Source of the DNA: Pseudocercospora fijiensis CIRAD86
Lineage: Eukaryota > Ascomycota > Dothideomycetes > Mycosphaerellales > Mycosphaerellaceae
DNA length: 21,694 nucleotides
Direction of reading: 5' to 3'
NCBI RefSeq assembly: GCF_000340215.1
Contig: NW_006921532.1
Coordinates: forward strand, 9,965,418 to 9,987,111
Positions 1,491-21,694 of the stretch are shown piece after piece (the stretch's first letter is position 1; each line of letters opens with the position of its first letter). A program made the position numbers and the translations under genes. A model generated the notes under the pieces. It saw only the letters and a program-made list of their open reading frames with translations, had not been told where the DNA came from and made no database searches.

Positions 1491-1499
1491 TTAACAGCA

Positions 1500-4400: not shown

Positions 4401-4859
4401 TTGCAAAGGGCAATTGCCGAGTCTTAAGAGAAGATTACGGGACTATATAATACTAAACGAAAAATGGCACCTTAGCTAAAAAAGGGGGATAAGGTCTACC
4501 TCCTAATAAAGAATCTGAAAACCCGGAGATCGACTAAGAAACTAGACTACGTTAAAGTCGGGCCATTTCTAATTAATAAGCCTAAAGGACCAGTTAATTA
4601 CCGACTCAAACTACCGGACGACGCGAAAATCCACCTAGTATTCTATATCTCTATGCTAGAACCTACAGACGCCGAAACACCGTATTAAGAAACATTTCAC
4701 TTCTAACTTAAGGAAGAAAACGAGTTTAAAGTCGAAAAGATCCTAGATCAGCAAGGTTAGAAATACCTTATTAAATAGAAAGGATACCTACATTTAGAAA
4801 ACACCTAGGAACCAAAAGAAAACCTGCAGAACTATTAGCAGATAATCAAAAATTTTTAA
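1500..4859 (+). pseudogene. pol: pol pseudogene of element 1: protease, RT, RNase H, integrase, chromodomain
   Basis: One uninterrupted frame of about 1,120 codons with only TAA/TAG breaks. The protease has ALIDSGASGNF (1542-1574). RT has VVDFRRLND near 2346, and the catalytic box YIDDILVYT starts at 2643 with both Asp kept. RNase H has [12 protein letters not shown] (3084-3119). The integrase has MDFITKLP at 3843, TDRD near 4040 and the catalytic Glu at 4152, so the D,D,E triad is still readable. The chromodomain (about 4728-4857) runs from VEKILDQQG through KGYLHLENT to a final IIKNF and TAA at 4857; its aromatic Trp positions are now stops. Chromodomains of this class steer integration to modified histones. 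The gene is dead, but RIP is the only lesion type seen: no frameshift. Confidence 0.95.
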
Positions 4860-4881
4860 AACCGAACAAAAAAGAAATAAC

Positions 4882-4942
4882 TAGTATAGGAATTGAACCT
4901 ACGACCTCTTAGACCCTATCGATCATAGCGCCTTAGAGTTCT
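4882..4942 (-). other. possible tRNA-like remnant (T-arm) in the 3' non-coding part of element 1
   Basis: On the minus strand GTAGGTTCAATTCCTAT has the shape of a tRNA T-arm (5-bp stem with one wobble pair, TTCAATT loop), preceded by AGGTC as in a variable loop and, further upstream, CTAAGGCGC as in a D-arm end. I could not find a matching 5' acceptor strand or a clean anticodon stem, so it is not a functional tRNA. It may be a captured or RIP-decayed tRNA piece or chance similarity. Confidence 0.25.
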
Positions 4943-5084
4943 TAACGACCTAGGGTAGTGTAGCTCGAGGAGCGGGGACTCCAATAGTATACCTAGCAAC
5001 TATGTCTTTTATAGCTAAGAATCATACTACTAGACCAACTAGCTAGAAGATGAAATGGATAGGAAACATTAAAAATATATACCT

Positions 5085-5669
5085 TTAGGATACTAGACTC
5101 TCGGCACTCCTACTAGGAATTTCAGAGGTAGGCTAGGACGTCCTATCTAGACGACTCTAGTTATGAGGCGACATCTATAATCGGCTATCTAGGGGAAACG
5201 GCTCGTTAGCAGGTAACGAGAATATTATCGGCTCTATAGGCGAAGAACCTAGCTCTCTTTCGAGCTCCTCCGCCTATTAAATAGAGGCTTCCTCTACCTT
5301 AAGAGCTTATACCTCCCGATCTTCCTTTATACGCAGCGACTTACGTAAGCGACGGACCTTTACGCGATGCTCGAAAAGCTTCCGCGTAAGGAGGTCTTCC
5401 TCCTCTTCGGCCGCTTCGAGATCTTTAGCTATCTTTAGGCGCGCCTTCCGGATTTTTTTATACTCTATACGAGTAACTTGTATATTACAGGACTAGCCGT
5501 ATAGGGCGCACTCGGAGCAGCGGCCGGAACGGAGATCGACTTTGCAGGATTTATCGGCCTATTCGCAATAAAAGTAGCGGATCGGCATTTCGAGGCAGTC
5601 GGCAAGGATGTTATTTACGATATTTTCCTTACGCTAACGAGAAGACAAGTCCTTTAATGACTTTAGCAT
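5085..5669 (-). pseudogene. antisense accessory ORF of element 1: Cys-rich (zinc-binding-like) plus coiled-coil protein
   Basis: A frame of about 195 codons runs opposite to pol between the pol stop and the 3' LTR, starting at ATG 5669 (MLKSLKDLSSR). Residues about 35-65 hold a Cys cluster (YCE, SCKVD, GRCSECALYG, SCN) resembling a small zinc-binding or Zn2Cys6-like module. It is followed by a long charged helix rich in Glu, Lys and Arg (DLEAAEEEEDLLTRKLFEHR, VKVRRLRKSLRIKEDRE) that should form a coiled coil, then a Pro/Ser-rich tail. Only RIP-type stops interrupt it. The Cys-cluster-plus-coiled-coil layout resembles hypothetical proteins I associate with filamentous fungal genomes; function unknown. 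Its place inside the element suggests an antisense accessory gene, but capture of a host or foreign gene is also possible. The 3' end is chosen at TAA 5085-5087. Confidence 0.7.
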
Positions 5670-5718
5670 AGCAAAGAAGTTAGAATTAGAAAGTTCCGGA
5701 ATAAGGGACTATCCCGCT

Positions 5719-5733
5719 TAAGGAGGGGGATAG
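5719..5733 (+). other. polypurine tract of element 1
   Basis: A purine-rich run (AAGGAGGGGGATAG) lies immediately 5' of the LTR start. This is the expected place for the primer of plus-strand DNA synthesis in LTR retrotransposons. Confidence 0.7.
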
Positions 5734-6079
5734 TATTACGGATCTAATTAGTTAGAGTCCTTACATAATCTTAGAGCGACGCTAAGACTAGTAGGCTAAG
5801 CTGTCGCTCTATCTTACTAGGAGCGATAGGAGCGGTCGAGAGCGATAGCGTCGCTTACGTCGCTTACGACTACAGACAAGATGTCTCCTTTATATTTAGG
5901 AACGCCGGAATGCCCTTATAGCTCGAGGCGTTCAACTCATATTACTTACTCACTAATTAGAATTACCTTTGTACCAATTATTCTGTCTCTGCCTCCCGCT
6001 TGTGTTAGCCTCTCTAAAGAAGCCTCGGCTTGCACGTAATAAGAAGTCACTTAACGATCTGTCGCGAGTAACCGTAACA
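5734..6079 (+). repeat. 3' LTR of element 1 (346 bp)
   Basis: It begins TATTACGG (TGTTACGG before a TpG to TpA change) and ends CCGTAACA, giving an 8-bp inverted terminal match. It directly follows the purine tract, and at its right edge the integrase frame of element 2 resumes at base 6080. It holds a short direct repeat (CGCTTACGT, about 5860) and inverted GAGCGATAG-type blocks. The second half (about 5940-6065) keeps clearly more TG and CA than the surroundings. The target-site copy on the right should be 6080-6084 (CTACT); the partner copy is outside the window. Confidence 0.85.
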
Positions 6080-9000
6080 CTACTATAGCGTAGCATTCTG
6101 CCTCTCTGTTTAACCGTTAGTCTATAGATAGAAGGCTATTAATAGCCGATGCTTTAGTCTTAGCTATAGGCATATTTCGCTCTAATAGTGCGATATTAGT
6201 ATCGATCCGCGATTAGATACTATCCCCTTAGGGGTTCCCTAATAGATATAGAAGATGTTATTCTATAGCGCTTCTACTATATTAATAGCAGTCTAATCTT
6301 TCCGCGCCGGGATATATCGAGCGCCTTTAGTAAATCGATCTACTATAATAAGAATAGTATTATATATATCCTTGCTGCCCCTACGCTTAGTAGGAGGAAG
6401 GCCTATAATAAAGTCTATTATAAGCTCTATAAATAGCTTCTTTAGGATAGGAAGTAAAGACAGCTCGCTAAATAGCAAGTGTTTTAGTGCTTTAATACGC
6501 TAGTATACTACGTAGGTCTATATATATTCTTTTATATACTGCTTACTATTTAGCTAGTAGTATATACGCGATAGTAGCTCGTACGACTTCTCTATACTAT
6601 AGTAACTAGCAAGCTTACTATTATAGTGCCGCTTTAAAAGCTCTTGTCTAATCGATTGTTTAGCGGGGATATAGTATCTACCCTTAAACTTTAAGTAACC
6701 CTTATAATCGATCGACTAGTTACTCTTACTAGATCGAGTCGTTCGTCTACTTATAAGCTTATTAATACGTTCGATAGTAAAGGCGTCCCTCTACTAAGTA
6801 CGTAATAGCTTATCTACAAACGATTAACTATCCCTATTTGTAAGGTTATTCAATAGCACCCTCGCTATCGAACGAGGTACGTATTATATATATCTAATAG
6901 TACTAGCAGCCGGAATAACTATAACCTCTTCTATAGTACTATTGCTATATAGGCTATTACTATAGATAGTAATGTCTTTAATCGAGTTATTATAGCTCGA
7001 GCGATCTACGTCCTTTCTAACGCGTACTAGAAGAACGATAACTCCGCTATAGTATTTATTGCCGCCGCGGGGTCCGGAAGTCCGCTTATCCTACGCTTGC
7101 TTATTAATAATATAGGCTATAGCAATCTTATACTATAGGATTAGAACTAAAGAATTAATATATTAAGTCTCGCTATTGTAATTAGGTCGCCTCGATAGGC
7201 TATTAGTAGGGTTACTTACGCCTAGCTAATATAATATATTAAAATTAAACCTAGCGAGGTAGACGGCCTATCTAGCCTATCGACCTATAACCCTTATAAC
7301 CTTAGTAATACTACGTAGGTTGTTATAGTCTATATAGACCTAAATAGGGTGCTAAGTACTATCGAGATAGTAGCGCTAATACTTAAAGGCTTCTGCGATT
7401 GCTAAGAGCTCTTACTCGTAGGTCTCGTAACGACGCTCTACGTCGATTATCTTTCGTAAGAAGAAGGCAATCGGGTACTAATAGGTGTTATTAGCTTGCT
7501 GTAATATAATAGCTAATATAGCGAACTGTAAAGCGTTAGTCTTAATACGGATCTGCTTGCTTAGTACGAAATAGTGTAACAAAGGGACTTTAGTAAAGCG
7601 CTGCTTTAGGCCGTTAAAAGCGGCTTGTGTTTTGTTAGTCTATTTAAACTCTATAGAAGGGTTGGCCTTAGTCTTAGTAAGCTTAGTTAGCGGCATTATA
7701 TGCCTCGAATAGCCTTTAATAAATCGACGGTAAAAGTTAGCAAAACCTAGGAATAATTAGAGTTCCTTAACGCTAGTAGGTGTTAGCTGTTTAGTAATAG
7801 TTTTAATCCGATTAGGATTAGCTTTAACACTATTAGTCGATATAAGGAAGCTAAGGAAGGATACCTCCTTAGTAGCAAAGGTGCATTTAGAAGGCTTGTA
7901 ATATAAGCTATAGGCTCGTAGGCGGTTAAGTACCTTATAGACTATAGCCTAGTACTCCGCGATATTAGGTAAGTATATATAAACTAGGATATTATCTAGA
8001 TAAACTATACAGAGGTAGTCTAATAGGCCGGATAGGGCCCGATTAATATAGGATTAGAATATAGTAGGGGCATTAGCTAGCCTAAATAGTATAACTAAAT
8101 ACTCGAAATAGCTGTAGCGAGTACAGAAGGCTGTTTTCTATTTATCGCCCTTGCGAATACAGATACGATAGTACGTATCCTTAATGTCTAATATAGTATA
8201 AAAGCAGGCGCTAGATAGGCGATCGAGGGTCTCGTTAATAAGCGGAAGTAGATAGCGGTCCTTAATAGTAACAGTATTAAGTCTACGGTAATTAATATAT
8301 AAGCGTAGGCTACTATCCTTCTTTAGAACAAACAGGATTAGTATACTAGCAGGGCTATTGCTATACTAAATCCTACTATTAGCTAGGTTCTTATCTAGGT
8401 ATTTACGCAATATAGCAAGCTTACGCTTACTAAGGTTATAGAGTAGCCTAAAAGGAACCTCCTTGCCCTCTATAATATCGATCTTATAGTCTGTCTTTTT
8501 AAACATAGGCAATGTCGATACTAGGTAGTATTTCAATATATTAATATAGGTTTCTCGAATAGGCTAAGGTATACGAGCAGGCTAATTAGGGTCTATACTA
8601 TTAGGGGGTATAGGTTTATCGTTATCTCTACCGAGAAGATTAGTAGTCGGATTAGCTAAGGCGGGTGTTAGGTTGCTAATAAACAGAACCTTAACATTAT
8701 TAGGACACTCGCTAATATTAATATATTTAATATCTTCTTTTCGAGCGATTCTAAATCGCTACTATTAGCTGCCTAAGATTATAGCTATAGCGTATTGCTT
8801 AAGAATAGAGTTACTAAGGACAATATTAGCTAGAAGGTTGTCTATATCTACTACGTAGGCAGTAAAGTCTAGTAGGCGTTTATTACCGAGGTCGTCTTTT
8901 AGAACTATATAAATATAGTAGGCTCTATAGGTTAAGTGCCGAGCGTTATTAAACTAAGCAAGGATTCGTATATTAGTCCTATTTAGTTGTCGGAGGTCTA

Positions 9001-9190
9001 ATTGCTTAGCTAGGCGATAGTTAATAAGGGCGCTAACTAAATTGCCGAGGTCTAGTATACTATTGCTTCTATAGTTAGTACTATATATATCCTATATAAG
9101 ACAGGTACGTCTAATAGCTAGTATAATGTCGATAGTTTTACGCCGTATAAGGCTAACAGTTAGTACGGCGCTTATTCTTTTTTCGACTTA
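6080..9190 (-). pseudogene. pol: pol pseudogene of element 2 (protease, RT, RNase H, integrase), truncated
   Basis: One minus frame holds everything. The protease-like SILDLGNLVSALINYRLAK is near 9050. RT has KDSSLRLYINYRRLN and VTIKDRYLLPLINETLDR (about 8225-8320). The YxDD box reads YLDN (7991-8002), the second Asp changed to Asn. The thumb/connection has [16 protein letters not shown] (about 7700-7750). RNase H has PIAFFLRKIIDVERRYETYE (about 7410-7475). The integrase has IDFIIGLPPTKRRG, IIVDRFTKGARYIPARKD, GTPKGIVSNRGS (Asp to Asn) and TERQN with the catalytic Glu at 6104-6106. The frame is readable up to base 6080, where the LTR of element 1 begins. Many TAA/TAG codons, no frameshift seen. 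Confidence 0.93.
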
Positions 9191-9600
9191 TTAAAAGGGC
9201 CGATAGAGGTAGAATTAGCGGTAGAGAGGTGCCTCCTATACTTAGCGGAAGCACGGTCAATTCGGGTCTAATCCTTAGGTTTGTCGCATTAGCCTAGTAG
9301 GTAGCTAGTGCTATTATAGTTATAGCACTTTAATCTAGTTAGGACATTGCCGTAGACATTGCTACTATTATTAGCCGAGCGGTTAGTATTATAGGGATAC
9401 GAGCCCCTTCTACGGCCCCTATTACGGCCTCCTCTATATAGCCGTCAGGTACGGCTCCTTCTACGGTTAATATTACTATTTATATTATCAGCATTGTTAC
9501 CTTAGTAGGGGCCTTAGTTTCCTCCGTAGGCACTACAGTTGCTACGGTTAGTACTAGCTAGTCGGATCCTCGATTCTCGTCGTTACGTTATAGAAACTTT
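9180..9600 (-). pseudogene. gag: gag (nucleocapsid part) pseudogene of element 2
   Basis: The minus frame shows an Asn/Arg/Gly-rich nucleocapsid (ASTNRSNCSAYGGN, later RRRSRT and RGGRNRGRRRGSYP) followed by a CCHC-type knuckle at 9286-9327 (CYNYNSTSYLLG then Cys), with the second Cys and the His read as Tyr. A short basic and Ser-rich tail ends at a stop near 9180, and pol follows in another frame. Upstream of about 9590 the capsid part is not recognisable and the fold-back repeat at 9608-9689 begins, so gag is 5'-truncated. Confidence 0.75.
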
Positions 9601-9607
9601 TTTACTA

Positions 9608-9689
9608 ATCGCGACGATCCTATCGATAGGATCGCTTAGGATCTTTAGGATCGTACGTTAAAGATCTTGTCTAATAGGATCGTCGCGAT
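9608..9689. repeat. fold-back repeat with 16-bp perfect arms
   Basis: ATCGCGACGATCCTAT (9608-9623) is matched by its exact reverse complement at 9674-9689, with a 50-nt loop. The left arm overlaps a separate 20-bp perfect palindrome (9615-9634), and the loop holds further AGGATC copies. It sits where the gag of element 2 stops being recognisable, so it may mark a rearrangement or insertion edge. Confidence 0.75.
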
Positions 9690-9740
9690 CTAGAAATTCT
9701 AGTAAATCTAATCGTAGTTAGAATTTTATTCTTTACTATT

Positions 9741-9759
9741 CGACTCGTATATCGAGTCG
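9741..9759. repeat. short hairpin, 7-bp stem
   Basis: CGACTCG, a TATAT loop, then CGAGTCG. A further CTCGAGTCG follows directly. No terminator or regulatory role can be claimed. Confidence 0.5.
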
Positions 9760-11026
9760 GGCTCGAGTCGTCGTAGGTACTAGTACTACCCTTTAAATTA
9801 CATTTTCTATCGGATCTGTATATTATACGATTATTGCTTCTACTAATATCTAACGTTTATACGTATACTCGGGTAACTACCGGCATTTGTATACGTCTAC
9901 TACGTATACTAAGTTAGTACCGACTTAGCGACCGACTCGTATAGTATTAATAGATTTCGTTATATTATATAGGGTATCTATTTATTACGGTTAATAAGAA
10001 TGTATTCCATTCGTCCTCTACGGCTATATTAAAGCGATATACCTCTACCTTCTTTCGTTTGTTTCCTTTCGACTTCTTCTTCTCTTTTACTATATATCTC
10101 CTAATTCTTCGATCCTACGTCTCCTCGTTAAATGCTATCTCCTTAACTTTACCGCCGTCCGCCTCTATATCCGTCTACTATATCTACTCCCCCTCTTCTA
10201 GCCCTAATATATCCCTAACGCGATTACTTACCGCCGCGAATAAAGTCTTATCTATCACATAAGACCAGTTAGAATATCTGCTATTCGCATAGTAATTAGC
10301 GCGTAATCCTTTCCCTATTATAACCACTACGGTATATCTACACCTTTTATACTAACCGTCTTTAGTTCTACTACATTCTATTGTCTCGGTTGCACTTGTA
10401 CCGTTGCCTCCCTATACTAAAGCAAACGGATTAGTAGCCTCCGTCGGCTCCTAATCTATCGCCTAGAAACTACTCTATAGTATAGGTAGTCTAATATCGC
10501 TTTTCTTAGGTAGGGCCTCCGCCTCCGCTAACTTATCTATTATATTGTCGCCGGCTTTAAGTTATTTACTTAATTGTTACCCGGTAGACGCTTTAGGACC
10601 TATCGATTATATTAGTAGGTAAGAGAAATACGGCGCTCGTAGACTATTCTTACTATAGCGCTCGATCGATCCGCCTTTATCGTCGGAATCTAAAACGACG
10701 TCGATTGCTATAAGTATATCGATATCGTTACGTACGCTCTCGAAGTTATTTATTAATAATTTAGGGGTATCCTATACTCTACCTATATACCGTACGTATA
10801 TCTTCTACGCTTTCGATAACCGAAGGTTACGAGTAGCTTAATCCGTCGCATTCTACGTAGTTATCCGATCTAGGAATAGCTAGTATATTAACTTGTAATC
10901 TAAGGCTAGCTAGATCGCTTTACCTCTAACTTTAGTTAAATACGACTCTATCGACTATCCGGTTAGTATTCTACTAAGTACTATAGCGGTAGACAATATT
11001 ATAAAAGGGGTAACTTTATAGTAGTA

Positions 11027-11076
11027 CTATTTAATATATATCTTCTAGCCTCGCCGATCCTACCGGAGTAGTATAC
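11027..11076 (-). other. candidate second intron in the unknown long gene (50 nt)
   Basis: A GTATAC donor after CGG and a TTAAATAG acceptor bring the LVSLYTNV frame in phase with the TPFIILSTAI frame. The branch site is weak, so a small indel in the gene is an alternative. Confidence 0.4.
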
Positions 11077-11781
11077 CCGCTAGACATTTGTATATAAGCT
11101 TACTAAGGTAGCGCGTAGTATATATCGACCGTTAGCTATTATCTAGTAACTATACTATTTTAGAGAGGGTCTTACTAGTTTCTCGTCGTAGCACTCGAAG
11201 ATTTAGTTATCGAGCATCCTCTTAGCGTATACTATCCTTTTTAGAGTATCGGTTATTGCGATCGGTACTTAGTTTATTAAGGTCGATCGGATATAGGTAT
11301 TAATATAGTAGCCTCGCTCCTTTCGTATAGCTTCTCGCAACTATTCTAATATTAGTCTTAATGCTATTATATCGGAATCTCTACCGACTACTTAGATTAC
11401 GTCTCTCGATAGTATATAGCTACCCGGCTATAGTACTATTATACGTAAAGCTAGTAATCGATCGTAGTTTTTACTATATACCTCCTTAATTGTTTCGTCT
11501 ACCTATACTAGGGTTTAAGTAGTAGGAAATACCGTCTTATATCCTCTAGCCCTAGTTAACGTAATAGCGAATAGTTTACGACGCGTCTCGTTATATAAGA
11601 TTTACTCCCTTGCTTCGAGTAAGCCCTTCTTTCGATTTAAACGTTCTTTACTAGTAGTTATTAAGCCTTTGTCTCGCTTCTTACGTCGTTTTAATAGCTT
11701 TATATCGTCGCTCTAATCCGCCCTATCGTCGCTGTACTTCTGTTTTAGCCTTACCGGATCTTTGCTATTCCTACCCTTATA

Positions 11782-11825
11782 CTAGTTACGTTAGTCCTCT
11801 ATCGCCGTACTCTAGTATACGTTAC
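11782..11825 (-). other. spliceosomal intron in the unknown long gene (44 nt)
   Basis: On the minus strand AAG|GTAACG begins the intron, GGACTAACG gives a perfect CTAAC branch site and AACTAG ends it. Removing it joins two open frames that are otherwise out of phase (SKFIK to YKGRNSKD). Donor, branch site, acceptor and frame repair all agree. Confidence 0.7.
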
Positions 11826-12639
11826 CTTTATAAATTTCGATCTAATACTAGTCGCTACGTATAAACAAGTCTCCTCCCTATTTTCTTCTTCGATTCTAGT
11901 ATCCCTATCTAACTCTATCGAGTCGGACGACGATTAAGTTCTATATTTATCTTCTTCGTAGTTACGATCTATCCTAAGTATACTATAACGAGGAGTAGTA
12001 TTATTGCGAATCTAACGTAGTATATATTAGACTATACGCGTCTTCGTACTTATTTATTCTACGAAAAGGGGGGTATTAAATTGCGGTTTTATCCTCTTAT
12101 AGACTACCCGAGTCGCTATCTATAATCGCTTATTAGTCCTATCGAATATACCCCGCTAACGCTAAAGCATAATCGTAGCCTATAGACTATTCGCTATTTT
12201 CGTACCTTATCGACGCTAGCCCGATTCGGTCGCGAGTCGGATTCGGGAACTATTAATCTAGCGCTATTATTAGTCTAGTGGTAATTATTGTAGTCTAGGC
12301 CGACGGTATATAGCAACACTATCGATATTGTACTAAAGCAATCGGCGTATTTAGACTATTTATTCCTCGCTCGGTCGCTACTATAGTATATATAGATATA
12401 TATTCTTTATCGGTAAATTAATCGGCGTTAGCTAATCCGCTAGGTCGAATATATACCTTCGAAGCCGCCTCGCAGTATTAAGGGTTAGTTAGAACTATCT
12501 ATATCGGCGTATTTAGCTAATTCGAGGTTAATAATACTATAGAGGCCTTATACTCGATAGATGCAATTCGAAATAGATTAGCTAGAGGCATGCAATCTAC
12601 CCTAGCCTAACGACTACTAGTCGTAGCCGATTTAGCCTT

Positions 12640-14640
12640 TCCTTAATTATCGCGCTACCCTAGGTCCGCTATCGCTATAGCGCGATTAGGGTACTTAAAT
12701 ATAGGCCGAGATTAAATAGATAAAGGAAGAGATCGCGGCGCTTAAGACTACTATACGTAATATGCTTACTATATATTAGTATATATCTAAGATTAAAGCG
12801 TAGTACTTATCGTAGCCGGGGTATCTTGCCTTCCGTTTAATAAATAGATTAGTACCTATTACTATTAGAGTAGGACTTCTATATCGGACTTAGTAAAATT
12901 AATTATTTATCTTGCTTTTCTGCGTTTATATTTACGCTCGTTCTACCTCCTTAATTTACCTATAGATTGCAAATCGCAGCTATAGGCCTCTACCTAATAT
13001 ATCGGATAGACTAGCCCTCTACTATCGCTCGTTATTAATTCGAACGTGTCTATATTAGTCGCTTATTTAATATAAGGCGTCGACTCTGGCTTCGAAACTA
13101 TAATCTACCCGTAGTATCTTAACTAATCGTTCGAGGTCTATATTATCGACTCCTACTAACGTGCGGCCTTTAACTATAAGCTAGCAATAATCGAGTTTAT
13201 ATAGTCGATATATAGGTTTTACCTTCCCGTTCTACTCTTATACTATAACTATGCTCTACTATATATTATTTAGTACGCGGTACGGCGGTACCGCTCTAGA
13301 TCCTTCTAGTGTCGCTAGTCTAGTATCCGTAGATATAGCAATTTCCGCGTAATCGCTAGTATTGCCGACTCTACGCGTTATTACGCGTACCGTTTTTCGT
13401 CTCGTCCGTCGGCGATAATTAGAACAAATCTTATATACTAGGCACCTAAACGCAGTCTGTCCCTCTATCGTACGGATCTGCTTTACTACCTTAAGGAACT
13501 CTTCTTCGTATTTCTCGTCCATTAATACTAGGTCGTATAGGTAACCTTGCGTCCTTCGGCGTTCTAGTAATAATAGTAATCGGAACGTGCTGCTAATCTA
13601 ACTAGACTCCTAAATTAACCTCTCGACGCTAGCGTAAAATACGTAGTATATCGACGGCGATAGGCTAAGGCTGCGGGTAATACCGCCTATTAAATATTAA
13701 TTACGAGGTAGTTAAGTACGTAGTATTCTCGAAGGCGGTAGTTATATATATAGCGTAGTAGAAAGTCGACGTTAGTTAGTAGCAGAAACTAGAACTACTC
13801 TAGTCGCGGGGTTTGCTAGTAGAACTATCTAGATTAGGCCGACTCGGGCCCTAATTCGGTATCGAATCGGGTACTAAGCCTACTAGATAACTTCTATATC
13901 CTCTATTACTAACTTCGGTAGCGGGTTTAGCAAATTACGTTATCTATTATCTCGCTTCTTAACCTTACGCCTACTATATTATATTGCTACGGATTTATAT
14001 ACGGTCGTTTATTCGGCCTCCTACTTAGACTACTACTCTAGTATACGATCTACAAAATATTTCGATCGTTTTATGCCTTTGTTTGCTACTCGTTATAGCT
14101 AAACATATGCCTTTTCGCCGCCGATAGAGTTAGTAGCATCTATAGAAAACATACTATCTTAATCGTTAGCTCGAACTATCTATATGCCCTACTCTCGGGT
14201 CCTAAGACTAACCGCCTTATTAGCCTATACCCTCGTACTATAGCGGGTCTAGTCTACTCGCTATCGTATAATAATTATTAGTTACTATAAGGATATAGAT
14301 CGGTCTATTTAGCTGCATTGCGTAGCTTATTAGCACTCGCGTCCCGCGCTAGCGATCGTAGTCGCAACTCTACTATAGATAGGTTTATATTTATATTACT
14401 AACTTTCGATTACTTATTACGTAGTACTATATTTACTGCGACTTGTTAGTCCTGTATCTAGAACCGTCTATTGTATAGGGGTTTATACTATAACGATTAT
14501 CTGCAGCCTTATTACTTTAGTTACTAGTTGCGTAACTAAACTATTATATACTTAAGCGCTAGATGCCTTACTTCGTCGATTTATTAGCTAGTTAGGCCCG
14601 AATCGCTAACCGACCCGGTTACGAAGTGGGCATTTGAGGT
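12640..14640 (-). pseudogene. second long degenerate reading frame of unknown function
   Basis: One minus-strand frame runs for about 650 codons with only TAA/TAG stops. It contains a fully open stretch at 13259-13522 that starts MDEKYEEEFLKVVKQ, continues EGQTAFRCLVYKICSNYRRR and ends near AVPPYRVLNNI. Downstream are YRLYKLDYC, VGVDNIDLERLVKILRVDY, a Gln/Lys-rich part and TNLFIKRKARYPGYDKYYAL. The upstream half is very stop-rich, which would mean a Gln-rich N-terminal half. First-position purine richness favours the minus strand, but from about 13780 to 14640 a plus-strand frame has fewer stops, so the direction there is uncertain. No family recognised; both ends are approximate. Confidence 0.42.
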
Positions 14641-15074
14641 CGTTACCTTTCCTAATTACTGCCTTCTTTAATATTTACTATTAACTTGCATTAATATACC
14701 TGTTCTCTATATATATACCCCCTTACCCTCCCTATCGTACGTATAGTATATTATTTCCTTTACTAATACCCTATTCTAACTTATATATAGGCCGTACTAT
14801 ATAACTTAGCCGCCGTGCTCGACTAGCGTTAAGCTAGTATATATAGACACTTATTGTATAACGTAACTCTAACGGCTCGCGTTAGGGTCGGCGGGTATAA
14901 GTAGCTCTCTACTCCTATTCTTACCTCCGCCGACCCTAACGTATAGCGAATTTTACTACCTCTATTAGTTTCTCTACTACTCTCGGATAGTATACGTCGT
15001 TATCGATCTATAGTCTCTAACCTCTACTATATAAGTATTACTAATTAGTATAACCTATTATATACTAATGCTAT
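14640..15074. other. non-coding stretch, pyrimidine- and TA-rich
   Basis: No open frame that looks coding. It holds a CT/TA-rich run (about 14700-14770, including TATATATACCCCC), and the inverted repeat at 14880-14941. It could be a promoter region for the plus-strand ORF that follows or the edge of a small inverted-repeat element. Confidence 0.5.
14880..14941. repeat. inverted repeat, 15-bp perfect arms
   Basis: CGTTAGGGTCGGCGG (14880-14894) is matched by CCGCCGACCCTAACG (14927-14941) across a 32-nt loop that is itself partly complementary next to the arms. The GC-rich arms stand out from the TA-rich surroundings. It would fit a MITE-like or hairpin element; no target duplication was identified. 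Confidence 0.7.
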
Positions 15075-15653
15075 ATACTAGTTACAAACTCGTCGCCTAC
15101 TACCTTTACCGAGATAGTAGTCTCTACGAATATCGAGAACTAGCTAAATAATAACGAGCTACTAATTAAAGCCTTAAATAACGGCAAAGACGTCCCTAAA
15201 CATATTATACTAAACCTATATAGTATCGATTAGCCTCTTCTTAAGTTAGTAATAAAAAGGCTCCTTCCGTATCTAGAGAAGTATTTTTTATTTAACCGGT
15301 CGAACGGGAAGTAGCTTCGCTAGCCCGTTAAGGGGCATTATAAGGAGGAGAAAGATATAGTATACGCTATTGCTAGCAACCTTAACTATCCTACTAAACC
15401 TCGACGTAGGCTATTAATGCCCGAATAGTACTTTAAAGATCCTAAATAGGCTCCGAAGTAGTACGTTAGGGGAATACTTCCGTAGGATAGAACAAATAGT
15501 CCGAATAATTAAATTTAGAGGTCTATAGTCTACTTAATATACCGCCTTATATAGAAGGTTATAAGGGACAAGTTTACCCCGCCGGCCGGTAATAATGCTA
15601 AAGAGGAAGACGTATCCGAGAGCGAGACTAGACCCCGCAGTAGTTCGGGTTAG
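15075..15653 (+). pseudogene. unknown protein of about 190 residues, RIP-mutated
   Basis: A plus-strand frame with purine-rich first positions and only TAA/TAG breaks. It shows NNNELLIKALNNGKDVPKHI, LLKLVIKRLLPYLEKYFLFN, GHYKEEKDIVYAIASNLNYP, a basic PTKPRRRLLMPE, and an acidic Ser-rich tail (AKEEDVSESETRPRSSSG) before TAG at 15651. The start is set at ATA 15075, an ATG if the TpG to TpA change is undone; an earlier start is possible. I do not recognise the family. It looks like a small soluble, mostly helical protein. It lies just upstream of the GC-rich repeats and the H3-associated block. Confidence 0.5.
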
Positions 15654-15709
15654 TTTAGTTTGGTTTGCTAAGCCGAAACTCTAGTTTGGTTTAGGTTGGT
15701 TTGCTAAGC
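15654..15709. repeat. pair of 20-bp direct repeats with low RIP load
   Basis: TTTAGTTTGGTTTGCTAAGC (15654-15673) recurs with one difference at 15690-15709 (TTTAGGTTGGTTTGCTAAGC). The segment keeps TG dinucleotides, unlike the flanks. Function unknown. Confidence 0.65.
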
Positions 15710-15812
15710 AACTATATAAGTAGCTAGTTCGAACTATATAATTTATCGGTTTTTAAGAAGTGTACGAATGTGTACGTAGCTTCAAGCAAGCCCTTTATAA
15801 GACTTAGTAGTA

Positions 15813-15845
15813 TAGCCGGCAGCGTAGCCGGCAGCGTAGCCGGCA
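15813..15845 (+). repeat. 12-bp tandem repeat array, copy A (three GCCGG units)
   Basis: Three GCCGGC cores spaced 12 bp apart (unit TAGCCGGCAGCG). The array is embedded in about 80 bp (15793-15875) that also match copy B at 16646-16728, including the flanks CTTTATAAGAC and AGTACT. The same array occurs inverted inside an H3 intron (17272-17304). Confidence 0.8.
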
Positions 15846-15875
15846 TTTTTAGTCCTTAGTACTTATAGAATTTTC

Positions 15876-16072
15876 GAATCCTACTTAGGCTACGTAGTTA
15901 TATAAAGGTACTTATATAACCTTAAATCTATAGACAATTAGCTAAGGGCACTAACTAATTAAAAGCATACATATATATATATAAGGTATTATAGTTCAGT
16001 TCGGAAACTATACTCCTTAGGTATAAATTTCATCCTTTCGTTTACGGTTTAATTCCCTAACTGCTTAGTAGA
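15876..16072. promoter_or_regulatory. possible upstream region of the ORF at 16073
   Basis: No coding frame. It contains a TATA-rich run (ACATATATATATATAAGG near 15970) about 100 bp before the ATG and a CT-rich stretch (CATCCTTTCG) just upstream of it. Both are ordinary features of fungal promoters; the assignment is inference from position. Confidence 0.3.
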
Positions 16073-16597
16073 ATGTCTTTATCTAGATCTAGGTAGAACT
16101 TATCGATTTCCGTCGAAGCTCTCCTTAAGAAGTTCTAGCACTTTCCTACTAAACTATACTCTAATATTAAGTACTAGGATAGCTCCTCCCTCGATATCGG
16201 CACTATATACGAAACAGCTATAAGGCAGCTCTATAGGGCGTTCTACTAGTTACTCGCTATACTACGGCCGAATACTAGTTCGTTCCTTAGAACTCTAGGT
16301 CATTTAGTAGATATTAAGGATAGGGTAGGCAGTAACTTCGTATTATATAAGGAAGTAGAGGCTGCTATAGAGGAGTCCTTTAATCTATAGAAGATAGTAA
16401 AAGATATAGAGGCAGCTATAGGTCTAGGTACCTAGTTGAATTTCTAGCAGGTAGAGTATAAGGATATTTAGTAGGAGTATTAGGTAGAGTTGCGAAAGCA
16501 GGTATATAATATAGTCTAGAGAATAGGGATAATGCCTATAACTATAAGTATTAGGTTCTTCAATCTTCCTCCTTTTTTCCTTGTTTTCTTTTTATAA
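16073..16597 (+). pseudogene. unknown helical protein of about 174 residues, RIP-mutated
   Basis: The frame starts at ATG 16073 (MSLSRSR) and keeps phase to TAA 16595-16597, with stops only of TAA/TAG type at likely Gln positions. The first two thirds show alternating helical segments (SISVEALLKKF, TIYETAIRQLYRAF, LLAILRPNTSSFLRTLGHLV, FVLYKEVEAAIEESFNL). The last third is Glu/Gln-rich, likely coiled coil (VEYKDI, VELRKQVYNIV), then a hydrophobic end. I do not recognise the family. It lies between repeat copies A and B and next to the H3-like gene transcribed toward it, so the two could be a co-duplicated pair. Confidence 0.5.
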
Positions 16598-16922
16598 AAA
16601 TCCAAACTAATATAAATTAACTAGAATGTCTATCTTCTTTTAGTTCTTTATAAGACCTAGTAGCGTAGCCGGTAGCGTAGCCGGCAGCGTAGTCGGCCTT
16701 TTTACTCCTAAGTACTAACGGGTTTTTCGAAGACTTCTATTCTATACGGCTAATAAAGTATACTATACTATATAGGTATACTTAGAGAGTATTTAGAGCG
16801 CGGTATACAGCGCCGTATAACAGCGGCTTATTTCGTATATAGAAAAGCTTATAGACGATACTACGAACATCCTTCCTACTAGTATATCTATCCTATCTAG
16901 CACTATCTCGAATATAGACATT
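16598..16922. other. no assigned gene; contains repeat copy B
   Basis: Both strands show frames with few stops here (plus: SYIEKLIDDTTNILPTSIS near 16835; minus: a continuation beyond the H3 core). These may be antisense shadows of the H3-like gene or a C-terminal extension of it. I cannot support a separate gene. Confidence 0.35.
16666..16697 (+). repeat. 12-bp tandem repeat array, copy B
   Basis: Same three-unit GCCGG array and flanks as copy A, in direct orientation about 850 bp away, with three C/T or A differences. The two copies bracket the ORF at 16073-16597. Confidence 0.8.
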
Positions 16923-17008
16923 CTAGCCTTTTAGAATCTAATCGAGTACTTTAAAATCCTTATCTATAATCGTTATACGCTTCGCGTAGATAGCTGTAAG
17001 GTTAACCG

Positions 17009-17056
17009 CTAAAATAGTATTAGTATAGTCCGAAAAGAGGTAGAAGAGAAACATAT
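17009..17056 (-). other. H3-like intron 2 (48 nt) with mutated splice donor
   Basis: The branch site TACTAATAC and acceptor TTTTAG are intact. The donor now reads ATATGT after GAAT, where GTATGT is expected; the G to A change lies in a TpG, the RIP context. Removal gives FES-VNLTAIYAKR, matching the H3 loop between helix 2 and helix 3, and no other removal does. Confidence 0.8.
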
Positions 17057-17239
17057 ATTCGAAGATACAAACTAGGTAGGCTTCTATAGCCTCTTAAAGG
17101 GCGCCTATCGCGGAGGCTTAGAAGCGAAGGTCCGTTCTATAAGCCTAGGCAATTTCGCGAATAAGTCGTTAGAAAGGAGCTTTACGGATTAGGAGATTAG
17201 AACTCTTCTAATACTTCCGAATCTTACGGAGGGCTACGG

Positions 17240-17318
17240 CTAAAGAAGGATTAGTAAAAAGACAGTAAGAATGCCGGCTACGCTACCGGCTACGCTACCG
17301 GCTATAAATAGGACTTAC
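17240..17318 (-). other. H3-like intron 1 (79 nt) carrying the 12-bp tandem repeat
   Basis: A perfect GTAAGT donor, TTTACTAATCC branch site and TTCTTTAG acceptor. Splicing yields the invariant GTVAL motif of H3. The middle of the intron (17272-17304) is the three-unit GCCGG repeat found free-standing at copies A and B. Confidence 0.85.
17272..17304 (-). repeat. 12-bp tandem repeat array, copy C, inside an H3 intron
   Basis: Three TRCCGGCTACGC units, inverted relative to copies A and B. Homology to them extends a few bases past the array (the CATTCTTA side matches CATTTTTA of copy A). Confidence 0.85.
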
Positions 17319-17493
17319 TTCCTAGGCGCTATCGACGCTTCGTACGATTATTACTACTAGTAGTAGAAGCGCTAGTCGTCGTCTTACGTAGAGCCTTACC
17401 CGCCGTTGTCTTACGCGGAGCCTTGCTCGCGACGCCCTTTCTAGTACCGGATCTAGCGGCAGTAGTAGTAGCCTTCTTACGTTAATATACTAT

Positions 17494-17830
17494 ATACTCG
17501 TTCTACTATTTCCGGTCTTAATGCGACCCGTAGAAGTAGTAGGTCCCTTCTTACGAGGCGTCGTAACTTAGTTAAGTAGACTCGGTATTATAAAAGTCGT
17601 CGAATTAAGGAAAAAAGTGCGTTACGAAGGTATACAAAAGCGCGCGCGGAGCGAGGGTATTACGGAGATAGTAGATATAGAGCGTAGAGATATAGGTATC
17701 GATACGAAGGTTAAATATAGCGAGAGAGGTAGTATCGCGGTATCGCTAGGCAATAGAGTAAGCGTCGCGTAAGCCTATATTATAGTAACGTTAGAGTAAG
17801 GAAAGAAGGTAGGTACGGCTAAAAAAGGCA
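17494..17830 (-). promoter_or_regulatory. pyrimidine-rich leader or promoter region of the H3-like gene
   Basis: Upstream of the H3 tail the minus strand is open in the same frame but strongly pyrimidine-rich at first codon positions (for example TACCTTCTTTCCTTACTC near 17815). That is typical of fungal 5' leaders rather than coding DNA. An N-terminal extension of the histone cannot be excluded. A GGTACGGC direct repeat lies at its outer end (17812-17838). Confidence 0.35.
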
Positions 17831-18116
17831 GGTACGGCAAACTTTGAAATATAGCCGGTATATATAGCTAGTATAGTAATAGGCGAAAGCCTCCTTTTAA
17901 TAAATAGCCGGCGTAATAATAGTATCCCACTATAGTATAGATATTCTTTAGTAATACCCTTACTAGCTATAGTAATCTTATAAGTAACCTAGGCCTATTA
18001 CTAGGAAATATAAGAAATATTAGGTAGGCTATACTAAACAAGCTAGTTATTTAGTAGGAAAAGGCCTACTACCGTCTCTATATACCGGCTACGAGTGCCG
18101 GCTATCGCTCTAAATT
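17831..18116. other. intergenic stretch with four TAGCCGG motifs
   Basis: No gene seen. Copies of the 9-bp TAGCCGGYA motif lie at 17852-17860, 17905-17912, 18083-18091 and 18096-18104, in both orientations. Confidence 0.5.
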
Positions 18117-18469
18117 TAACTCCGCCCTATCTCGGAGGCTAAGGTACCGAGCGGAAACCCTATAGCTTATATTTACTCGGTTGTTACGGAGCGCTTATAG
18201 GTAAGGTATTAGAAAAGAGTATAAAAAGTACGAGAAGAGTATCCTAGGATATAGGTCGTAAGTAAATAAGAGTAGTACGCCTAGTTATTTATATAGTACG
18301 TTACTCTATACGACTAAGAGCCTATATTATCTCGTACTTCGCTTATAAGACCTCGACTCTACTAATATACTATTAATCTCCTACTCGGTCGCTGTCTTAA
18401 TTCTTCTTCGAGTTGCCGGACTTAGTACGTATCTGTCGCTATACAATAGCGCTACGTATTATAGAGAAT
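18117..18469. repeat. tandem duplication, copy 1 (353 bp)
   Basis: It begins TAACTCCGCC and ends at the AGAGAAT before copy 2. It includes ACCGAGCGGAAA, GAGTATAAAAAGTACGAG and CTTCGAGTTGCCGGACTTAG, all repeated in copy 2. A minus-strand frame is open over part of it (VRQLEEELRQRPSRRLIVY), but the two copies differ by 8 bp in length in that part, so coding is doubtful. Confidence 0.9.
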
Positions 18470-18830
18470 TAACTCCGCCGTATCTCGAAGGCTAAGGTAC
18501 CGAGCGGAAATCCTATAGCTTATATTTACTCGGTTATCGCGGAGCGATTATAGGTAAGGTATTAGAAAAGAGTATAAAAAGTACGAGAAAAGTATCCTAG
18601 GATATAGGTTATAAGTAAATAAGAGTAACACGCCTAGTTATTTATATAGTACGTTACTCTAAATAACTAGGAGCCTATATTATCTTATACTTCGCTTATA
18701 AGACCTCGACTCTACTAGTATACTATCGATCTCTTCCTTAGTCGCTAATACGCTATCTTAATTCTTCTTCGAGTTGCCGGACTTAGTACGTATCTATCGC
18801 TATATAATAGCGCTATATATTATAGAGAAT
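18470..18830. repeat. tandem duplication, copy 2 (361 bp)
   Basis: Head-to-tail copy of 18117-18469. Most differences are C/T or G/A, as expected from independent RIP, plus one length difference of 8 bp near 18740. Confidence 0.9.
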
Positions 18831-19220
18831 CTCTCGTTAAAGTTTCTCTCTCGTAGGCTTACTATCTGCCTCGTAGTATAGAGGATTAAAGTACTAATAC
18901 TAAAGAATCTCCTTATAGTTAGGATACTAGGGCTCCTTAGGACCTTTATATTTTAGGTCTAAATAGAGACGTATTATAAACGTTCTCTCGCCCTTTCGCT
19001 TACTACCCGCTAGGTCGCGATATACGAAGAAACTAATCTAAATATAGCTCGTCTCTATAATAGCCGGGTAAATATAGAGCGCTAGGTTTCTACTTCGTAC
19101 CTTAGATTTAGGGACGGCGCGGAGATAAAATTAGAAATATAGCTAGTACCTATAGCCGGTAAAAGGATGCGAAAATGGGCCTCCTCCTAGGTTAATCTAA
19201 CGACTAAATACAATTTCTAA
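18831..19220. other. no recognised gene
   Basis: Downstream of the CenH3-like gene. Frames are partly open on both strands (plus: AYYPLGRDIRR and KDAKMGLLLG), but nothing is recognisable. TAGCCGGGTA and TAGCCGGTA occur at 19061-19070 and 19153-19161. Confidence 0.4.
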
Positions 19221-19862
19221 CTAATCCGCTATAAACCGACGCCGAATTTTAGCTAGAAGCTATATATCTTTATTTTAAAGAGTAACCCGCTTCGTATAGA
19301 TAGTAAGGAGGTTTAAAAGCTTAAGCTCGGTTACGAGAAATGCCTCTATAGCTTCCTAAAGAGTACTAATCGCCTTAGCCGTAAATCGTATACTAGACCG
19401 AAAATCTAATATAATTTCTCGGACGAGTCGCTAGAAGGGAGTCTTAGGGATTAAAAGCTCGGTCCCTCTTTTGTTTTAGAAAAGCCGGATCTAGCGAAGG
19501 GTAATAGTACCTAGTTTAAAGCGCCGCTTCTTTATCGTCGAGTCCTGCCTTATTCCCTTTTTTTTAATAGAAAGATAACTTTTCTTCGCGATAGCCTTCG
19601 TCCGCCTACTCTTTTTAGCCTTCTCCTATCTACCTAAAGCCTTCTTATTTTTCGGTACTATTTTCCGAGAAACCCCCTTCCTTCGTATATACTATAGAGA
19701 GTCTTACTCTTCCGATATCTCGTTCTCGCTACGGTCTCCCTATACTTAGCTTACTTTACCCTTACCCTTTAGCCTCTAAAGATATTTATCTATACGTTTA
19801 AGCGACGAGGGTATATCGGTAGGATCTAGAAAATTAATAAGTATATAATCGTAAGGAAATAT
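19221..19862 (-). pseudogene. divergent histone H3 variant, CenH3-like, long N-tail, intronless
   Basis: One minus frame without introns. The N-terminal tail is about 120 residues: NFLDPTDIPSSLKRIDKYL, an acidic bit (DRSENEISEE), then a strongly basic run (NKKALGR, KAKKSRRTKAIAKKSYLS). The histone fold follows: KLGTITLR, TELLIPKTPF, RLVREIILDF, IRFTAKAISTL, EAIEAFLVTELKLLNLLTIY, TKRVTL, NKDI and LLAKIRRRF. Compared with H3, two residues are inserted before TELLI and helix 2/loop residues are replaced. A long tail and a divergent core are hallmarks of centromeric H3 (CENP-A/Cse4), but no diagnostic residue proves it; another H3 variant is possible. Breaks are TAA/TAG at H3 Gln positions. The start is taken at ATA 19862 (ATG if RIP is undone); the frame is open to about 19980. 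The end is TAG 19221. Confidence 0.85.
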
Positions 19863-20218
19863 TAATGCTTCTTGCCTTCTAGAATGAATAGTCTTCTATT
19901 AAACCGCCTTAGTAGGTTATCGTTAGATTCGTATAAAGGATAGTAGCTTAAGGAAGAGGAGGTAGCCGGCTTAGGAAGGCCTAAAGAGCCGAATCCTTAA
20001 GGTATATTTATCTTTAAGAATATAGGGAAAGGGAAGAAGGAGAGGAAGAGCGAATAGAGAATTAGAAATAGTCCGTAGGTAAGCGGGGTCGGTTACTATA
20101 GCAACTAGTCTATTTAGGTCCTAGGAATTCGAAACATATTTTAGATATATACCGGCTATATATACCGGCTATATTATCTTATACGTAAACGCTTTGTCTC
20201 CTTAAAGCTACTCTAAGC
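19863..20218. other. intergenic stretch between the H3 variant and the hAT transposase
   Basis: No gene supported. Motif copies TAGCCGGC (19973-19980) and paired TACCGGCTA (20150-20158, 20163-20171) are present; the latter pair lies just beyond the transposase C-terminus and could belong to the hAT element end. No clear terminal inverted repeat was seen. Confidence 0.4.
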
Positions 20219-20649
20219 CTATATATATTTCCGCTTCTCGACCTAGTATCGCCTTCTACCTCCGCCCTCCTCCTCTTCGTTATCGCTAATTAGGGTTTCG
20301 CTTAGACTAAATTTCGTATTCTCTTCGCGCTCCTAGGTTTCTTCGATCTTAAGGTTTTCTAATTCCTCGATTAACTCCTTTAGTATAATCTTTAGTAACC
20401 TACCTTAGCGACTCTAGTAGAGGAGATAGTATCGGAATACTATAATAGATTCGAAGGTAGTAGGCGAGTATATTCGATTAAAGCGGCCCTAGTAACGAGC
20501 GATACTAAAAGACCTCTTATAGCCTATACCTACGCTCGGGATAGCGAGGACGTCCCGAGCGACCGACGCTATTATTAGAAACTTAGGCTCTAACCGCTAC
20601 TATATAGCGAGAATATCGTCTCTAAATTCGTCTAGAAGACCGGTAAAAT

Positions 20650-20695
20650 CTAGAGATTATTAGCCCTCTTTCCGAGCCTACGGGTTTATACTTAC
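20650..20695 (-). other. intron in the hAT transposase (46 nt)
   Basis: Donor GA|GTAAGTAT, branch-like GGCTAATAA, acceptor CTCTAG. Splicing restores the frame between the RNase H-like part (EEFDLY) and the dimerisation domain (NFTGLLDEF); without it the domain is out of frame. Confidence 0.8.
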
Positions 20696-21565
20696 TCGCG
20701 CGCTAATAGAGATCGAACTCTTCTTTATTTACTTTAGTAGTTGCTTCCTTTTCTGCCTCTACTTCCTACCTACGAAATAGGTATAATATCGGAGCCTTCT
20801 AAACCTTCTTTTTCTTTATAGGAGCTATATTTAGACTAGTTTCTTTCCGACGCTCGTAGAATATCTTTTCTAGAATAGTCTAGTAATACTTCGGCTATAC
20901 CTCGTCTGCCTTCTATTCCGGCCTCTACTAGTATATATCCTTTTCTACCGGGTTAAGTAAGTACGTAACGCTATAGATATCCCCGAACGACCTAAAGGTA
21001 GCACTATAATATTTATATAACTTAGTATAGGAGGTGTCTATAGCTTTCGTTATAGCTACTTTCTAGGGAACGCTCTTCTTAGCTAGCTTAGCTACGGTTT
21101 CCTCGAGCTCGTTAAAGAGCTAGTTATAGTACGTAAAGATAAGGTAGATCGTCGGTCCTTAGGTTCTTCTAATCGTAGTAGTAACCTTCGCGTAATGCTT
21201 ACTAATATCGACGAGATACTCTACTTAGCGCTATTCGGCGGTAGTAAGGCCGAGCTACTTAATACCCTCGGAACTCTAATAGATCTCGAGAGCGGTACGT
21301 AAAGTATATCCTCTTATAACTATATAGAAAGTCGAATCGAACCGAGTCTTAATATCTTAGGTAAAACGGAGTAGGCGCTAAGGAGGCCGCTTTTACTATC
21401 GCTTATTCTATACGATATTCTAGGTATCGGTTTTAGAGCGCTCGATTAGGTTCTTTTAAATAGCCTCGAATCGGTTATATCTCTATAAGCTCGAGTTTAT
21501 ATATATTACTAGACGACGAAGCTAGAGAAAAAAGGTTAGAACTATACTAGGTTGCTAGCTATAGG

Positions 21566-21574
21566 TACCGGCTA
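21566..21574. repeat. TACCGGCTA motif near the hAT 5' side
   Basis: Another copy of the 9-bp motif scattered from 15.8 kb onward. It lies within the open frame upstream of the recognisable hAT core, so this segment may be an intron or an insertion. Confidence 0.4.
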
Positions 21575-21694
21575 CGGATAAAAGTTATACCTTATATAAA
21601 ACGAGAGCGAGGCTCTCCTCCTTATCCCGTTTTATTACTATAACGAGTTTCTCGACTTTCGACTCCAAGCTCTGAGGCACGTAAACATCTTCTA

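What the first reader, a model, noticed from the sequence alone, without database searches (positions are those of the whole stretch)
16923..19862. Two different histone H3-family genes buried in a RIP-mutated transposon field
Two minus-strand genes 2 kb apart both read as H3 histone fold but are unlike each other: one has an H3-type tail and two introns, the other a tail of about 120 residues, no introns and CenH3-like changes. Core histones and centromeric histones are normally conserved single-copy genes; divergent paralogues embedded in repeats and inactivated by RIP are unexpected. They may be cargo of a mobile or accessory segment, or degenerate copies of a variant family. Intact copies elsewhere would be a new H3 variant system.
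Basis: partly seen in the sequence, partly recalled or inferred. Interest (0 to 1): 0.88.

Follow-up and report, generated by a model that had tools for sequence, protein, structure and literature searches.

The report
Transposon-borne histone H3 gene pair
In this fungal genome (likely the banana pathogen Pseudocercospora fijiensis) a transposon with well over a hundred copies carries two different histone H3-like genes, broken by stop codons in every copy examined; one of them keeps what look like two introns, so it was probably captured as chromosomal DNA and not from a transcript as published.

Summary
Two unlike H3-type genes lie on the minus strand at about 16923-17588 and 19221-19814, both broken, in strongly CpA/TpG-depleted DNA. 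Both are cargo of one transposon: a full-length copy on another contig is 9531 bp with 20-bp inverted ends and an 8-bp target duplication, and the window holds about 6 kb of such a copy. This matches a published case (Dhillon 2019, PMC6710886): a hAT element of P. fijiensis with one or two H3-like copies per element, 784 in all, RIP-inactivated, host H3 intact. So the find is known. Three points go beyond or against that paper. (1) Gene 1 has an apparent intron within one codon of the host's second H3 intron, and the paper's '16-AA insertion' has the marks of a 48-nt intron; transcript capture does not fit gene 1. (2) The genes are divergent, near full-length H3-like genes with different tails. 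(3) Shared indels in inferred coding parts keep frame (8 of 9, against 2 of 13 outside), suggesting upkeep as genes before RIP; substitution tests are mixed. CenH3 affinity was not found. Among 150 scored histone hits only the host's H3 and CenH3 lacked stops. A transposon with its own working H3 pair stays open.

The parts
15629..21694 (-). Right-truncated copy of the H3-carrying transposon (about 6 kb of a 9.5-kb element; genes on the minus strand); aligned to the full-length C4 copy up to 21664, a run of N starts just after the window
15629..15648 (.). 20-bp terminal inverted repeat (one end)
   Evidence: the same 20 bases end the C4 copy, whose other end differs at one C/T position
16923..17588 (-). 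Gene 1: H3-like, two apparent introns, several in-frame stops
17319..17588 (-). Gene 1 first exon: N-terminal extension and H3-type tail (residues matching K9, K14, K18, K23, K27 of H3 by eye); start codon inferred (ATG in 1 of 39 copies, ATA in 36)
17240..17318 (-). Apparent intron at the place of the host's second H3 intron (one codon further, same phase): donor GTAAGT 38 of 39 copies, branch ACTAAT 37 of 39, acceptor TTAG 39 of 39, length 66-103 nt
17057..17239 (-). Gene 1 core exon (histone-fold first part)
17009..17056 (-). Apparent second intron, 48 nt in 39 of 39 copies; the paper's 16-residue insertion. Donor starts GT in 6 of 39 copies, AT in 32, AC in 1, with T before it in 39 of 39 (RIP context); acceptor TTAG or TCAG 39 of 39
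16923..17008 (-). Gene 1 last exon (end of the histone fold, stop codon)
17495..17496 (.). 2-nt insertion that shifts the frame in this copy; shared with L037, absent from L031
19221..19814 (-). Gene 2: H3-like, no intron in the core, long lysine-rich tail, several in-frame stops
19512..19814 (-). Gene 2 tail (101 codons, start inferred)
19221..19511 (-). Gene 2 histone-fold core, two extra codons near the first helix compared with host H3

Best explanation
This is a stop-codon-broken copy of the hAT-type DNA transposon already published from (most likely) this same fungus, Pseudocercospora fijiensis, and it carries two divergent histone H3-like genes, of which gene 1 was probably captured as chromosomal DNA with an intron and not from a transcript. 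How it likely worked: an ancestral element took up an H3 gene; the element came to carry two H3-like genes (by duplication or a second capture, not resolved), which drifted far from the host H3 in tail and fold; transposition spread the element into several subfamilies while both frames were, by the indel evidence, kept open; RIP then broke every copy examined, sparing the host H3 and CenH3. Shown: the element's ends and target duplication in one full-length copy, the two genes, the splice-signal pattern, the stops, the subfamilies, the intact host genes. Inferred: species name, hAT membership, splicing, genomic capture, upkeep before RIP. Untested: that the proteins entered nucleosomes.
For: Element: 9531 bp, 20-bp inverted ends, TSD GTTACGAG on both sides of the C4 copy. 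Match to the paper: about 9.5 kb, 20-bp TIR, 8-bp TSD, two H3-like copies per full-length element, 16-AA insertion in one, original H3 on scaffold 6 (here contig C6), a similar number (784 published, 772 first-look candidates here). Gene 1 introns: the tail and the core are joined in frame at Gly-Thr-Val exactly by removing a GTAAGT...ACTAAT...TTTAG stretch; host junction G|GT ACC, gene 1 GGA A|CC; donor 38 of 39, acceptor 39 of 39, lengths 66, 69, 79, 91, 92, 102 and 103 nt, i.e. all three length classes modulo 3, while the flanking exons change by multiples of 3 in shared indels. The 48-nt stretch has GT at its start in 6 of 39 copies and A in the T-preceded G position in most others. Upkeep: shared indels are multiples of 3 in 8 of 9 coding cases and 2 of 13 noncoding (p 0.0015; p 0.0087 without intron 1 events and p 0.029 with overlapping tail events merged). 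Transversion-only fixed differences in the cores are fewer at codon positions 1+2 than 3: 18 of 366 against 21 of 181, p 0.007. Gene 2 core is slower than its upstream flank (11 of 290 against 31 of 359, p 0.015). A parallel with intact, expressed H3L genes in a hAT element is in print for Pyrenophora tritici-repentis.
Against: Introns rest on sequence signals; no transcript was seen. The intron lies one codon off the host position. hAT transposase domains PF04937 and PF05699 gave matches in the genome but none inside the C4 or the window copy; PF14372 rang nowhere, controls included; one open piece matched a P-element-like RNase H family at E 0.018, under the cut-off. Upkeep tests are mixed: gene 1 exons differ more between subfamilies than noncoding DNA around them (31 of 263 against 30 of 426, p 0.038), gene 1's N-terminal extension shows the opposite of the coding pattern (13 of 71 at positions 1+2, 0 of 33 at position 3, p 0.008), both tails and the gene 2 core alone show nothing (p 1.0, 1.0, 0.31). 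Tail indels lie in repetitive codons, where slippage could also give multiples of 3. The indels were classed by hand after the table was seen.
Confidence: 0.72

Rival explanations
1. The published model: a host H3 transcript (retrocopy) was captured once by the hAT element, and a 16-residue insertion arose by mutation before amplification.
For: Gene 2 has no intron in its core; the paper recovered intronless near full-length H3 after correction (read).
Against: Gene 1 carries two stretches with donor, branch and acceptor signals in nearly all 39 copies, one of them within a codon of a host intron, with lengths in all three classes modulo 3.
Confidence: 0.12
2. Two captures: gene 1 from chromosomal H3 DNA, gene 2 separately from an H3 transcript or by intron loss.
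For: Gene 1 and gene 2 are about as far from each other (0.160 at transversion-only positions 1+2) as each is from host H3 (0.160, 0.187).
Against: Saturation and short length make such equal distances weak; both have tails longer than H3.
Confidence: 0.35
3. Dead passengers: the H3 pieces never worked in the element and were only carried along.
For: Gene 1 exons change as fast as or faster than noncoding DNA between subfamilies; several codon tests are negative; all examined copies have stops.
Against: Frame-keeping of shared indels, conserved splice sites, slower gene 2 core.
Confidence: 0.3
4. The apparent introns are chance signals in decayed pseudogenes.
For: No transcript evidence; the second donor reads GT in only 6 of 39 copies.
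Against: Signals sit exactly where H3 frame and residues resume, in four subfamilies; the lost donor base is in RIP context in 39 of 39 copies.
Confidence: 0.1
5. Gene 2 is a CenH3 derivative.
For: Long tail and a few residues such as EAFLV shared with CenH3.
Against: No nearer to the host CenH3 (28 of 150) than to H3 (28 of 150); no longer loop 1 (by eye); host CenH3 has its intron elsewhere.
Confidence: 0.03

Closest known systems
hAT element with histone H3-like copies of Pseudocercospora fijiensis and five relatives (Dhillon et al. 2019, PMC6710886; parts 1-5 of 7 of the text read)
   Same: Length about 9.5 kb, 20-bp TIR, 8-bp TSD, one or two H3-like copies, RIP, intact host H3 on scaffold/contig 6, 16-residue stretch in one copy. 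Almost certainly the same element.
   Different: The paper calls the copies mostly truncated and intronless and infers transcript capture; here gene 1 shows two apparent introns and both genes are near full length with own tails.
H3L in a hAT element of Pyrenophora tritici-repentis (Manning et al. 2013, PMC3538342; passages and section 20 part 1 of 2 read)
   Same: A hAT element with a histone H3-like gene that fits neither H3 nor CenH3, with tail insertions.
   Different: One H3L per element, 26 copies nearly identical, mostly intact, with ESTs; the 2019 paper reports no similarity between the two hAT elements. I could not compare the H3L sequence.
Host canonical H3 (L001) and CenH3 (L026)
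   Same: Histone fold; H3 intron 2 lies one codon from gene 1's first apparent intron.
   Different: Host genes have no stops and are not in RIP-like DNA.

Membership tests
[quoted passage not shown]
   C4 copy, 20-bp TIR with one C/T difference, GTTACGAG on both sides; window copy has one end only
hAT DNA transposon | hAT transposase domain inside the element | tested here: inconclusive
   PF04937 21 matches and PF05699 47 matches in the genome, none inside the C4 or window copy; PF14372 none anywhere; a 55-aa piece hit TNP-like_RNaseH_N at E 0.018 below cut-off. The paper found DUF659.
Published P. fijiensis H3-hAT family | About 9.5 kb, two H3-like copies in full-length elements, one with a 16-residue insertion, RIP bias, original H3 on scaffold 6 | tested here: met
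Published P. fijiensis H3-hAT family | Same TIR sequence as in the paper's Figure 6 | not testable with these tools
   figures are not held
Retrocopy (transcript capture) | No introns | tested here: not met
   gene 1: two apparent introns; gene 2 core has none, so the feature is met there
Core histone H3 | H3 fold and H3-type tail | tested here: met
   PF00125 hits for stop-bearing copies to E 2.4e-24 (stops read through by the tool); gene 1 by codon-level alignment to host H3
Core histone H3 | Open reading frame | tested here: not met
   gene 2 core 4-8 stops per copy, 0 of 37 free; gene 1 core exon 3-7 stops, 0 of 39 free
CenH3/CENP-A | Closer to CenH3 than to H3 | tested here: not met

The most novel reading that the evidence does not exclude
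A DNA transposon lineage carried and maintained its own pair of divergent histone H3 variants, each with its own tail, one with introns, which packaged or marked chromatin for the element's benefit over the time in which at least four subfamilies arose, until RIP silenced all of them in this genome.
Probability: 0.3. Interest if true: 0.75.

Novelty: already known. Interest (0 to 1): 0.45.

Why it matters
Histones are among the most constrained proteins. Transposons that carry H3 genes have been reported at least twice in Dothideomycetes; if their H3 genes were kept as working genes, transposons would have their own hand on chromatin. The intron result changes the published account of how the gene was taken up (DNA, not RNA) for at least one of the two genes, and makes upkeep testable with elements of sister species.

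Tried and rejected
CenH3 origin: rejected. Simple RIP copies of the host genes: rejected, since transversion-only distances at codon positions 1+2 (24 and 28 of 150) exceed that between host H3 and CenH3 (18 of 150). A clean selection signal: tried with fixed transversion differences and regional controls; mixed. Intact relatives by tail: two open pieces of 66 and 59 residues gave no candidate, but the tool only considers proteins of 0.55-1.75 times that length, so full-length relatives could not appear. Pfam on six open pieces of the genes: weak Histone hits only (E 0.067 and 0.28). Pfam on retroelement-like pieces at the left of the window: none at E 0.1 or better. H4/H2A/H2B cargo was not tested separately. 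A structure model was not made. Rows dropped: for gene 1, copies whose locus did not span the gene; 39 copies remain (30 main subfamily incl. window, 5 B, 2 C, 2 D). For gene 2, alignment rows L069, L071, L073 (same loci as L003, L010, L016) and L005 (same copy as L031) were dropped; L005 was still in (27 main rows). One single-base gap event in intron 1 was left out of the indel count as ambiguous.

Full report
What is there. On the minus strand of the window lie two H3-type genes. Gene 1 runs from about 17588 to 16923, gene 2 from about 19814 to 19221. The whole stretch is depleted in CpA and TpG, the mark of repeat-induced point mutation; the host H3 locus is not. Both genes are full of stops: in the aligned copies the gene 2 core has 4 to 8 and the gene 1 core exon 3 to 7, and no copy is free of them (0 of 37 and 0 of 39). 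This window copy also has a 2-nt insertion in gene 1 that it shares with one other copy, L037.

How common it is. A search of the own genome (73.94 Mb, 30 contigs) with PF00125 had 772 candidates and scored 150; 148 carry internal stops and two do not: L001 on contig C6, which reads as the canonical H3 in three exons, and L026 on C5, which reads as CenH3. The 28 other loci that were cut out all match the window's element. DNA searches had 401 to 528 first-look candidates for parts of the element, 40 scored each, so the copy number is a lower bound.

The element. The window copy starts at 15629 with TAGACCCCGCAGTAGTTCGG. A copy on contig C4 (about 2992717-3002247) has this sequence at both ends, inverted, with one C/T difference, is 9531 bp long and is flanked by GTTACGAG on both sides. 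The window copy aligns to it up to 21664; a run of N starts right after the window, so the rest is not seen. Profiles of hAT transposase domains did not match inside these two copies (one search had no working control), which in broken frames says little; the assignment to hAT rests on the ends, the 8-bp duplication and the paper.

The case is in print. Dhillon et al. 2019 (PMC6710886; abstract and parts 1 to 5 of 7 read) describe in P. fijiensis a hAT element of about 9.5 kb with 20-bp TIRs, 8-bp TSDs, one or two H3-like copies per element (784 in all) hit by RIP, and the intact original H3 on scaffold 6. Manning et al. 2013 (PMC3538342; passages and section 20 part 1 of 2 read) describe a hAT element with an intact, expressed H3-like gene in Pyrenophora tritici-repentis. 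Paper searches listed no later treatment of the P. fijiensis element in the library that is held.

What differs from the paper: introns. The paper holds that the copies lack introns and so come from a transcript, and that one copy has a 16-residue insertion. In gene 1, the tail and the core are in different frames and meet, as ...Leu-Gly-Thr-Val-Ala-Leu-Arg, if a stretch GTAAGT...ACTAAT...TTTAG (17318-17240) is spliced. The host's second intron interrupts the preceding codon in the same phase (G|GT ACC against GGA A|CC). Over 39 copies of four subfamilies the donor is GTAAGT in 38, the branch ACTAAT in 37, the acceptor TTAG in 39, while the length varies over 66, 69, 79, 91, 92, 102 and 103 nt. 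The 48-nt stretch 17056-17009, which is the 16-residue insertion, ends in TTAG or TCAG in 39 of 39, has CTAAT in its branch region in 39 of 39, and begins with GT in 6, AT in 32 and AC in 1; the base before it is T in all 39, so loss of the G fits RIP. Removing it gives the same number of residues as host H3 between the two flanking helices. Gene 2 has neither stretch. So the transcript-capture account may hold for gene 2 but not easily for gene 1. No transcript has been seen; this is the main gap.

What differs from the paper: the proteins. Gene 1 has a full H3-type tail (by eye, lysines at the places of K9, K14, K18, K23 and K27) behind a further extension, and gene 2 a tail of about 101 codons that is unlike it. 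At purine/pyrimidine level, which RIP cannot change, positions 1+2 of 75 shared codons differ from host H3 by 24 of 150 in gene 1 and 28 of 150 in gene 2; host H3 and CenH3 differ by 18 of 150; gene 1 and gene 2 by 24; gene 2 and CenH3 by 28; gene 1 and CenH3 by 28. They are old, divergent H3 relatives, with no affinity to CenH3.

Were they kept as genes? Four subfamilies (A main, B, C, D) give a test. Shared indels in the inferred coding parts are multiples of three in 8 of 9 cases, outside in 2 of 13 (p 0.0015; without intron 1 events 1 of 7, p 0.0087; with overlapping tail events merged 5 of 6, p 0.029). I classed these by hand from the table, and the tail is repetitive, so slippage is a rival cause. 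Fixed transversion differences between A and B in the cores: positions 1+2 18 of 366, position 3 21 of 181, p 0.007 pooled; gene 1 alone 13 of 174 against 16 of 86, p 0.011; gene 2 alone 5 of 192 against 5 of 95, p 0.31; both tails nothing; gene 1's extension the wrong way (13 of 71 against 0 of 33, p 0.008). Pairwise A-C, A-D and C-D comparisons of the gene 1 core show no excess at position 3. By region, the gene 2 core is slower than its upstream flank (11 of 290 against 31 of 359, p 0.015), but gene 1 core exons are faster than the noncoding parts beside them (31 of 263 against 30 of 426, p 0.038), and much faster than its introns (1 of 126, p 5e-5). So frame upkeep is suggested, and strong protein constraint is not shown.

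Mechanism. Most likely: an H3 gene was taken up as DNA, the element came to hold two H3-like genes, both stayed readable while the element spread and split into subfamilies, and RIP then broke every copy examined. Whether the proteins acted in chromatin is untested. Novelty: the element is already known; the introns, the two unlike full-length genes and the frame-keeping of indels are a revision of the published account.

Noticed in passing
window 16900-17620 and C1:10022240-10022960 (L037): A second copy 99.3% identical over the gene 1 region lies inverted about 40 kb away on the same contig and shares this copy's 2-nt insertion: a recent local inverted duplication or an assembly matter.
   Followed up: no
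L003, L010, L016, L070-L079; rows: The 11 rows of subfamily B with 88% identity or more all lie on contigs C11, C12, C17, C20 and C23; of the 8 best rows of subfamily C, 7 are on C13 and 1 on C6. Subfamilies seem tied to certain contigs.
   Followed up: partly
window 17251-17306, 15811-15851, 16660-16706: Units of 12-13 nt of the type TAGCCGGYAGCG repeat inside gene 1's first intron, inverted towards the element end, and elsewhere in the element; they cause the intron's length changes.
   Followed up: partly
window 18116-18830: A tandem duplication of about 360 bp between the two genes, present as one or two units in different copies.
   Followed up: no
window 1-15628: Other broken repeats: open pieces at 37-633 and 3831-4076 look by eye like retrotransposon gag and integrase; no Pfam match at E 0.1 or better.
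   Followed up: no
gene 1 region, main subfamily copies: Half of the segregating transitions there are at CpG (32 of 75, CpA/TpG 29), unlike the gene 2 region (7 and 63 of 75).
   Followed up: no
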